From Prasinococcaceae sp. CCMP 1430 (taxonomy: Eukaryota; Prasinodermophyta; Palmophyllophyceae; Prasinococcales; Prasinococcaceae): a stretch of 29,209 nucleotides of DNA. The stretch covers positions 9,424 to 38,632 of the forward strand of contig RQSC01000697.1 of NCBI GenBank assembly GCA_013416795.1. Reading direction: 5' to 3'. Shown in pieces: positions 12,201 to 13,262 of the stretch (the first letter of the stretch is position 1; every line of letters begins with the position of its first letter). Below the pieces are notes generated by a model. It was not told where the DNA came from, searched no databases, and was given only the letters and a program-made list of their open reading frames with translations. A program made the position numbers and the translations under genes.

Positions 12201-13262
12201 GCCCGCCGCGCAGCTGCCGCAGGAGATCCTCGCGGCGGAGGGGCAATTGTTGCAGGGCACGCTGCGACTCCTTGTCGAACTCAAGACGCAGATGGCGCAG
12301 CGGAAGCTCGACGAGGAGGCGGAGGAGAGCGACGAAGAGGCCGACGACGATGATGAGGTGTGTTTGTGGGCAGCGCATCCTCGCCCCCGTGTCTCCCGCG
12401 CGTGCGCGCTCCAACGGCCTCCTTTACTAGAGTCACCCATCCGCCTCGCGCGACACTCGTCGCGCGAACCTCCCCATGGCGGCATGAGGCGCTCAGGGGC
12501 GCCTACACGCCACAAGCGAGCGGCGTAACCAGCCCCACGTGCCTGATCGGTGGCATGCTGGATTAGATGAGCCGCAGATCCCGAATAGCCCTCGCTCCAA
12601 GAGCGAGAGCTCTTTCGGCTCTCTCAGCCTGTCGTGTGCGTGCGATGTCATGCGGTGGCCAATACTGACGTAAGCTCGCGCGTGTTGGGCGGGCAGGATG
12701 AGTGGGACGGGGGTGAGCAGGAGGATGTCGAAGATGACGACGGCTACCTGGAGAAGCTCGCGAAGCAAGCGCGCAGTTACCAATGGAAGGGCGGTGAGGA
12801 TACACACGACGCGGACGACGACGACGACGACGATGATTATGACGCATTCTTTGGCACAAGTGGCTATGACGACGACATGAGCACACCCCTGGATAGCGTG
12901 GACGCCTTCGCGACCTTCAAGGACGTTATGGTGGCGCTGCAGGGGGCTGATCCAGCACGTGCGCAGGCTATGGCGGCGGGACTCGCGCCGGAGGCCATGA
13001 CAACGGTAAACGAGCTAATGGCATATGCCGAGGTTCGCCGCGTCGAGATCGTGCAGGAGGCTCAGGCCAAGATGAAGGTACGTACGAGAGAAGGCGCGCG
13101 CGTGCTGCAGCCGTCGCAATCGCATGTGGCTGCGCCCGTGGGCACGTCCGCTGTGCATGGGTGCGCATGAGCGCTCGTTTGCGACAGCATGCCTCTTGGC
13201 TAACCCGCGCACGTGTGCCGATGCAGGGTGGGAACGCGACGGCCGCCACGCCACATAATTAA
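9282..13262 (+). CDS. IPO7: Importin-7/8 family nuclear import receptor, five exons
   Basis: Exons 9282-9560, 9732-10325, 10411-12357, 12697-13077 and 13227-13262 are all phase 0 and give 1078 residues, close to human IPO7. The protein is a HEAT-repeat karyopherin that carries ribosomal proteins, histones and other cargo into the nucleus with Ran-GTP. The importin-beta N-terminal domain spans about residues 15-95 (KAAEQQL, ITLKNLCG). Strong family matches are WPWWKAKKWALH near 266, the EFAEVFL block at the start of exon 3, EDAELWEEDPHEY and AKLLECVLLNC. An acidic stretch of Asp/Glu from about 925 to 990 spans the exon 3-4 junction, followed by a conserved C-terminal helix region. Introns are GT-AG with CTAAC or CTGAC before the acceptor. 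Intron 3 (339 bases) carries a copy of the 156-nt repeat. Yeast counterparts are Sxm1 and Nmd5. Confidence 0.93.
12413..12580 (+). repeat. 156-nt intronic repeat, copy 1 (core 12421-12576)
   Basis: The core is identical, base for base, to 20213-20368 and 21663-21818. It lies in importin intron 3, about 60 bases after the donor and 120 before the acceptor, in the sense orientation. Within the core are three consecutive hairpins: a 9-bp stem with a 4-base loop at core positions 26-47, a 6-bp stem at 67-84 and a 5-bp stem at 87-106. Similarity extends to about 12413 on the left (two differences) and to 12580 on the right. No clear target-site duplication is seen for this copy. Confidence 0.95.

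What the first reader, a model, noticed from the sequence alone, without database searches (positions are those of the whole stretch)
12413..12580. Three base-for-base identical 156-nt sense-oriented repeats in or near introns
The cores at 12421-12576, 20213-20368 and 21663-21818 show no difference. Two lie inside well-supported introns of unrelated genes, and the third lies in a gene leader. All are in the transcribed orientation. Perfect identity in non-coding DNA means very recent spread, ongoing homogenisation, or strong constraint. The element does not carry the splice sites, so it differs from classic introner elements, which form the whole intron. It may be a short non-autonomous mobile element inserted in introns.
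Basis: partly seen in the sequence, partly recalled or inferred. Interest (0 to 1): 0.75.

Follow-up and report, generated by a model that had tools for sequence, protein, structure and literature searches.

The report
Intronic H/ACA-type snoRNA, three local copies
The three identical stretches look like three copies of a small RNA gene that guides a chemical change in the ribosome's RNA, sitting in introns of neighbouring genes; this is an ordinary kind of gene whose copies moved a short way, not a new mobile element.

Summary
In detail: three 156-nt cores are identical. The real unit is about 170 nt (12412-12581, 20204-20373, 21654-21823, all +) with a few differences at its ends. Searches of the 24.5-Mb assembly found only these three; their flanks are unrelated. 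Best reading: an H/ACA-type guide snoRNA gene. Copies 2 and 3 fold unaided as hairpin-hinge-hairpin-tail, and identity stops where an AGA/AUA box plus 3 nt predicts the mature end. The 5' pocket pairs 9+5 without mismatch to 28S rRNA UGAGC[UU]GACUCUAGU, the yeast psi2416 (snR11) site. The 3' pocket pairs 7+7, one wobble, to 28S CAUCUAG[UA]GCUGGUU. Narrow-geometry controls: 0 and 9 of 2000 shuffled rRNAs do as well; loose geometry: 26 and 56 of 1000. Weak points: no strict H box (5 of 6), copy 1 prefers another fold, no expression data, copy 2's intron only predicted. A new member of a known kind; modest interest.

The parts
12412..12581 (+). Copy 1 of the H/ACA-type RNA unit, in the importin-7-like intron; C-C mismatch and U-G pair in the lower 5' stem
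12358..12696 (+). Intron holding copy 1 (GTGTGT...GGGCAG)
   Evidence: spliced protein aligns to importin-7 chain 6n88, query 43-765 of 776, E 3.7e-84
20204..20373 (+). Copy 2 of the RNA unit, in a gene leader
20001..20495 (+). Putative leader intron holding copy 2 (unverified)
   Evidence: splice-like motifs only
21654..21823 (+). Copy 3 of the RNA unit, in the alkylglycerol-monooxygenase-like intron
21610..21956 (+). Intron holding copy 3 (GTGAGG...TCTCAG)
   Evidence: spliced protein 208 of 392 identical to P0026 across the junction
21658..21745 (+). 5' hairpin, copy 3 (copy 1 12416-12503, copy 2 20208-20295)
   Evidence: unconstrained fold of copies 2 and 3; columns
21668..21676 (+). 5' pocket, left guide ACUAGAGUC, copy 3 (copy 1 12426-12434, copy 2 20218-20226)
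21733..21737 (+). 5' pocket, right guide GCUCA, copy 3 (copy 1 12491-12495, copy 2 20283-20287)
21746..21761 (+). Hinge UACACGCCACAAGCGA with H-box-like ACACGC and ACAAGC (5 of 6 to ANANNA), copy 3 (copy 1 12504-12519, copy 2 20296-20311)
21762..21817 (+). 3' hairpin, copy 3 (copy 1 12520-12575, copy 2 20312-20367)
21769..21775 (+). 3' pocket, left guide AACCAGC, copy 3 (copy 1 12527-12533, copy 2 20319-20325)
21805..21811 (+). 3' pocket, right guide UUAGAUG, copy 3 (copy 1 12563-12569, copy 2 20355-20361)
21818..21820 (+). ACA-box position: AGA in copy 3 (copy 1 12576-12578 AGA, copy 2 20368-20370 AUA), 3 nt before the predicted 3' end
   Evidence: alignment columns 165-167; box variants and 3-nt rule in PMC7991803 passages

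Best explanation
The repeat is a gene for a box H/ACA-type small nucleolar RNA in three nearly identical local copies. It would be transcribed with its host gene and released from the spliced intron by trimming (inferred). Bound by the H/ACA proteins (dyskerin and partners; inferred), it would pair through two internal-loop pockets with 28S rRNA and direct pseudouridylation: at the first U of UGAGC[UU]GACUCUAGU (yeast 25S psi2416 equivalent, snR11 site) through the 5' pocket, and less surely at the U of CAUCUAG[UA]GCUGGUU through the 3' pocket. The copies arose by recent copying of just the RNA unit into nearby introns, or are kept alike by gene conversion. Shown: identity, copy number found, two introns, fold of copies 2 and 3, complementarity. 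Inferred: expression, protein binding, modification, copying route.
For: Copies 2 and 3 fold unconstrained as hairpin-hinge-hairpin-tail, z -3.62 and -3.83, with 0 and 1 of 200 shuffles as good. Identity ends one base before the end predicted by an AGA/AUA box plus 3 nt (rule and variants in PMC7991803 passages). 5' pocket: 14 contiguous Watson-Crick pairs flanking UU at one 28S site, present in L009 and L012 and in the L008 sequence; 0 of 2000 shuffled rRNAs and 1 of 2000 random placements reach this. That U is yeast psi2416 by recalled numbering, listed with snR11 and marked conserved in human (PMC8307265). 3' pocket: 7+7 pairs with one wobble; 9 of 2000 and 6 of 2000 controls. Sense fold z -4.16 versus antisense -1.90 for copy 1. 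Two of three copies in supported introns.
Against: No strict H box: ACACGC and ACAAGC match ANANNA at 5 of 6. Copy 1's best fold is another one (-74.8 kcal/mol; H/ACA lower stems have pair probability 0.00). With 35-nt flanks the 3' lower stem falls to 0.39 in copy 2 and 0.00 in copy 3. Without wobble pairs the 3' pocket has no qualifying match. Under loose geometry controls reach the scores more often: 26 and 56 of 1000 shuffles, 55 and 201 of 2000 placements, and the narrow borders were set after the match was seen. The 3' site is not a pseudouridine in the yeast table. Rfam shows nothing credible. The organism's own rRNA was not available, and no 18S was tested.
Confidence: 0.88

Rival explanations
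1. A short non-autonomous transposable element (MITE-like, SINE-like or introner-related) that inserted into introns.
For: Three identical units with unrelated flanks; no Rfam match.
Against: Only 3 copies found, all within 9.4 kb. Border direct repeats of 3, 4 and 5 nt are within chance: 696 of 5000 random placements have 5 or more. No inverted repeats of 40 nt or more in the window; by eye only CGGC/GCCG near the ends (shorter ones were not searched). Two rRNA-complementary pockets in the right geometry are unexplained by a TE.
Confidence: 0.06
2. Another structured RNA (for example a cis-regulatory RNA or a small-RNA precursor) whose likeness to an H/ACA guide is chance.
For: Stable sense fold in all copies; missing strict H box; copy 1 prefers a different fold.
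Against: Joint fit of fold, tail length and two 28S-complementary pockets, one at a known pseudouridine site.
Confidence: 0.06
3. Sub-question on origin: the copies are old and identical only because of strong constraint, not recent copying or conversion.
For: Likely functional RNA; flanks show no remaining similarity.
Against: Apical loops, the 10-nt bulge and the hinge, which are not guides, are as identical as the guides, so some drift would be expected.
Confidence: 0.1

Closest known systems
Yeast snR11, H/ACA snoRNA for 25S psi2416
   Same: Same predicted target uridine for the 5' pocket (PMC8307265 table passages; position by recalled numbering)
   Different: No sequence relation was tested or found by Rfam; the 3' pocket site is not in the yeast table
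Intronic snoRNAs of green algae (Ostreococcus tauri; Chlamydomonas)
   Same: snoRNA in introns of protein genes: 72 of 131 in O. tauri (PMC7671301 passages)
   Different: O. tauri snoRNAs are single-copy but for 3 exceptions; here three copies. The Chlamydomonas paper was not held; multigene families there are cited second-hand
snoRNA copies moving between host introns (snoRTs and 'constrained drift')
   Same: snoRNA copies in introns of unrelated genes; identical copy pairs occur in 13 of 217 human families (PMC8178906 passages; PMC3511168 passages; P. knowlesi PKS11 in PMC2656528 passages)
   Different: No A tail and no border repeat beyond chance here; copies lie within 9.4 kb
Introners
   Same: Repeated sequence found in introns
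   Different: Introners create the intron and have 5 to over 2,000 copies per genome (PMC9860276 passages); here the two supported introns extend 44-54 nt upstream and 115-133 nt downstream of the unit and 3 copies were found. Some introners carry no splice site of their own, so lack of splice sites alone does not exclude them

Membership tests
Box H/ACA snoRNA | Hairpin-hinge-hairpin-tail fold | tested here: met
   Unconstrained fold of 2 of 3 copies; copy 1 prefers another fold; flanks weaken the 3' stem
Box H/ACA snoRNA | ACA box or variant 3 nt from the 3' end | tested here: inconclusive
   AGA/AUA/AGA, variants named in PMC7991803, at the place where identity ends; the true 3' end was not measured
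Box H/ACA snoRNA | H box ANANNA in the hinge | tested here: not met
   Strict consensus absent; ACACGC and ACAAGC match 5 of 6. For this reason I claim 'works like an H/ACA guide' and leave formal filing to RNA evidence
Box H/ACA snoRNA | Bipartite pocket pairing with rRNA on both sides of an unpaired UN | tested here: met
   5' pocket 9+5, 3' pocket 7+7 with one wobble; 3' pocket weaker
Box H/ACA snoRNA | 14-16 nt from pocket to box | tested here: inconclusive
   14 nt for the 5' pocket, 13 (14 with one unpaired A) for the 3' pocket by columns; 14-16 in PMC2780460, 15-16 in PMC7991803
Box H/ACA snoRNA | Binding to dyskerin and partner proteins; expression | not testable with these tools
   No RNA or protein data
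Retroposed snoRNA (snoRT) | Target-site duplication and A-rich tail | tested here: not met
   Border repeats 3, 4, 5 nt, within chance; no A-rich tail in the sequence
Introner | The element makes the intron, in many copies | tested here: not met
   Introns extend beyond the unit on both sides; 3 copies found
DNA transposon / MITE | Terminal inverted repeats and target-site duplications | tested here: inconclusive
   No border repeat beyond chance; inverted repeats searched only at 40 nt or more, 4-nt CGGC/GCCG seen by eye

The most novel reading that the evidence does not exclude
A mature-sized guide-RNA unit is being copied from intron to intron over short distances, with borders at the RNA's own ends and without tail or target-site duplication: a local, possibly RNA-templated or conversion-driven route that keeps identical snoRNA genes in unrelated introns.
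Probability: 0.3. Interest if true: 0.45.

Novelty: new member of a known kind. Interest (0 to 1): 0.22.

Why it matters
It explains a striking identical repeat as a guide-RNA gene that Rfam misses, predicts two testable pseudouridines in 28S rRNA, and gives a clean case of a snoRNA unit copied between introns of unrelated genes with borders at the RNA ends. It also shows that identical intronic repeats need not be transposons.

Tried and rejected
tRNA genes in the window: 0 found. Rfam: one weak hit elsewhere in the window, one antisense hit at E 1.5 on copy 1, none on copy 3; copy 2 was covered only by the whole-window scan. Plasmid records: no match. The one 17-mer match in viral contigs (L007) lies in a 38%-GC contig with no further useful similarity and was dropped as chance. 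Box C/D snoRNA: not supported by eye. Target-site duplications: none beyond chance. Of seven loci, L009 and L012 scored as eukaryotic 28S and were scanned; the other five (L010, L011, L013, L014, L015) gave no Rfam hit at gathering score and were dropped. L008 is chimeric: its first 240 nt were scanned, and the 5' site, visible, sits too near its end to be scored there. An 18S pattern in viral contigs found nothing. A covariance model was built but not used for any search. Organism not identified: the near-identical proteins are unnamed clusters; Prasinoderma coloniale was considered from size and GC and not established.

Full report
What is there. The three cores named in the finding are exact copies. 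Aligning outward gives a 170-nt unit at 12412-12581, 20204-20373 and 21654-21823, all +, differing only in columns 2, 8, 9, 166 and the last base 170. Flanks of 400 nt share only short matches, lowest E 0.19 over 6 pairings, so this is not a segmental duplication with recognisable flanks. In the 24.5-Mb, 145-contig assembly the searches return these three places and no other, at E<=0.001, at E<=10, and with a 22-mer allowing 3 mismatches. The tool warns that counts for repeats are lower bounds and that very common words are skipped.

Where it sits. Copy 1 lies in intron 12358-12696 of an importin-7-like gene: the spliced protein aligns to PDB chain 6n88_A over query residues 43-765 of 776, E 3.7e-84. 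Copy 3 lies in intron 21610-21956 of an alkylglycerol-monooxygenase-like gene: the spliced protein is 208 of 392 identical to P0026 across the junction, and Pfam FA_hydroxylase matches its main exon at 6.9e-24. Copy 2 ends about 217 nt before an ATG at 20591 that appears to start the same gene. A leader intron 20001-20495 is plausible from splice-like motifs but not verified.

What it looks like. As sense RNA, copies 2 and 3 fold without constraint into two hairpins, a hinge and a short tail: -77.1 kcal/mol each, z -3.62 and -3.83, 0 and 1 of 200 shuffles as good. This is the H/ACA snoRNA plan. The second hairpin is followed by AGA (copies 1, 3) or AUA (copy 2), and identity stops one base short of the third nucleotide after that box. 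A review says the box is strictly 3 nt from the RNA's end and may read AUA, AAA or AGA (PMC7991803, passages seen). The copied unit thus coincides with a predicted mature RNA.

What it would guide. In the 5' pocket, ACUAGAGUC (left) and GCUCA (right) pair without mismatch with 28S UGAGC[UU]GACUCUAGU. The site was scored in L009 and L012, both eukaryotic 28S by Rfam, and is visible in L008; most of it also stands in an arthropod 28S primer (PMC8571607 passage). By recalled yeast numbering the first bracketed U is 25S psi2416, listed with guide snR11 and marked conserved in human (PMC8307265 table passages). The table's Um2417 and Um2421 also fall on U, which agrees with that placement. In the 3' pocket, AACCAGC and UUAGAUG pair, with one wobble, to CAUCUAG[UA]GCUGGUU in L009, the only one of the three 28S pieces that covers it. 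That site is not in the yeast table.

Controls. With pocket borders limited to a few bases around the folded stems, the 5' pocket's 14 contiguous Watson-Crick pairs were reached by 0 of 2000 dinucleotide-shuffled L009 sequences and 1 of 2000 random placements in the window. For the 3' pocket, one wobble per arm allowed, it was 9 of 2000 and 6 of 2000; with no wobble allowed the real 3' pocket has no qualifying match. With loose borders and a softer score, shuffles reached the real value in 26 and 56 of 1000, and random placements in 55 and 201 of 2000. The narrow borders were fixed after seeing the match, guided by the fold, so the strength lies between these.

Against it. There is no strict H box: ACACGC and ACAAGC match ANANNA at 5 of 6. 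Rfam recognises nothing credible. Copy 1, at the finding's coordinates, has a C-C mismatch and a U-G pair in the lower 5' stem and prefers another fold; it may be a weak or decaying copy. With 35 nt of intron on each side, the 3' lower stem drops to 0.39 (copy 2) and 0.00 (copy 3). Pocket-to-box distances are 14 and 13-14 nt, at or just below the 14-16 nt of PMC2780460 (passages) and short of the 15-16 nt of PMC7991803. The rRNA strings searched are absent from the assembly, so targets were checked in other eukaryotes, and 18S not at all. Because the strict H box is missing I claim that it works like an H/ACA guide and leave formal membership to RNA evidence.

How the copies arose. Loops, bulge and hinge are as identical as the guides, so recent copying or gene conversion is more likely than constraint alone. 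No A-rich tail follows the copies, and border repeats of 3, 4 and 5 nt are within chance, 696 of 5000 random placements having 5 or more. snoRNAs are known to change host introns (PMC3511168 passages; PMC8178906 passages), and in O. tauri 72 of 131 are intronic (PMC7671301 passages). The local, tail-less, exactly bordered copying is the only unusual note.

Verdict. Observation confirmed. Best reading: an intronic H/ACA-type pseudouridylation-guide snoRNA in three local copies (0.88). A transposon or introner family is not supported.

Noticed in passing
window 22471-25740 (-): Long ORF with an AAA_16/nSTAND-like NTPase part and TPR repeats: a STAND-type protein; identical to an unnamed cluster of 16 sequences (P0001).
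   Followed up: no
G000 (whole assembly): A universal 18S string (exact) and a 28S string (up to 1 mismatch) are absent, so nuclear rDNA seems missing from the assembly.
   Followed up: partly
L009, L012 (bacterial MAG records), L008 (IMG/VR contig): Eukaryotic 28S rRNA in records titled as bacteria or virus: contamination or chimeras.
   Followed up: no
window 12590-12630 (+): Downstream of copy 1 in the same intron, two adjacent small hairpins (CTCGCTC..GAGCGAG and AGAGC..GCTCT) seen by eye.
   Followed up: no
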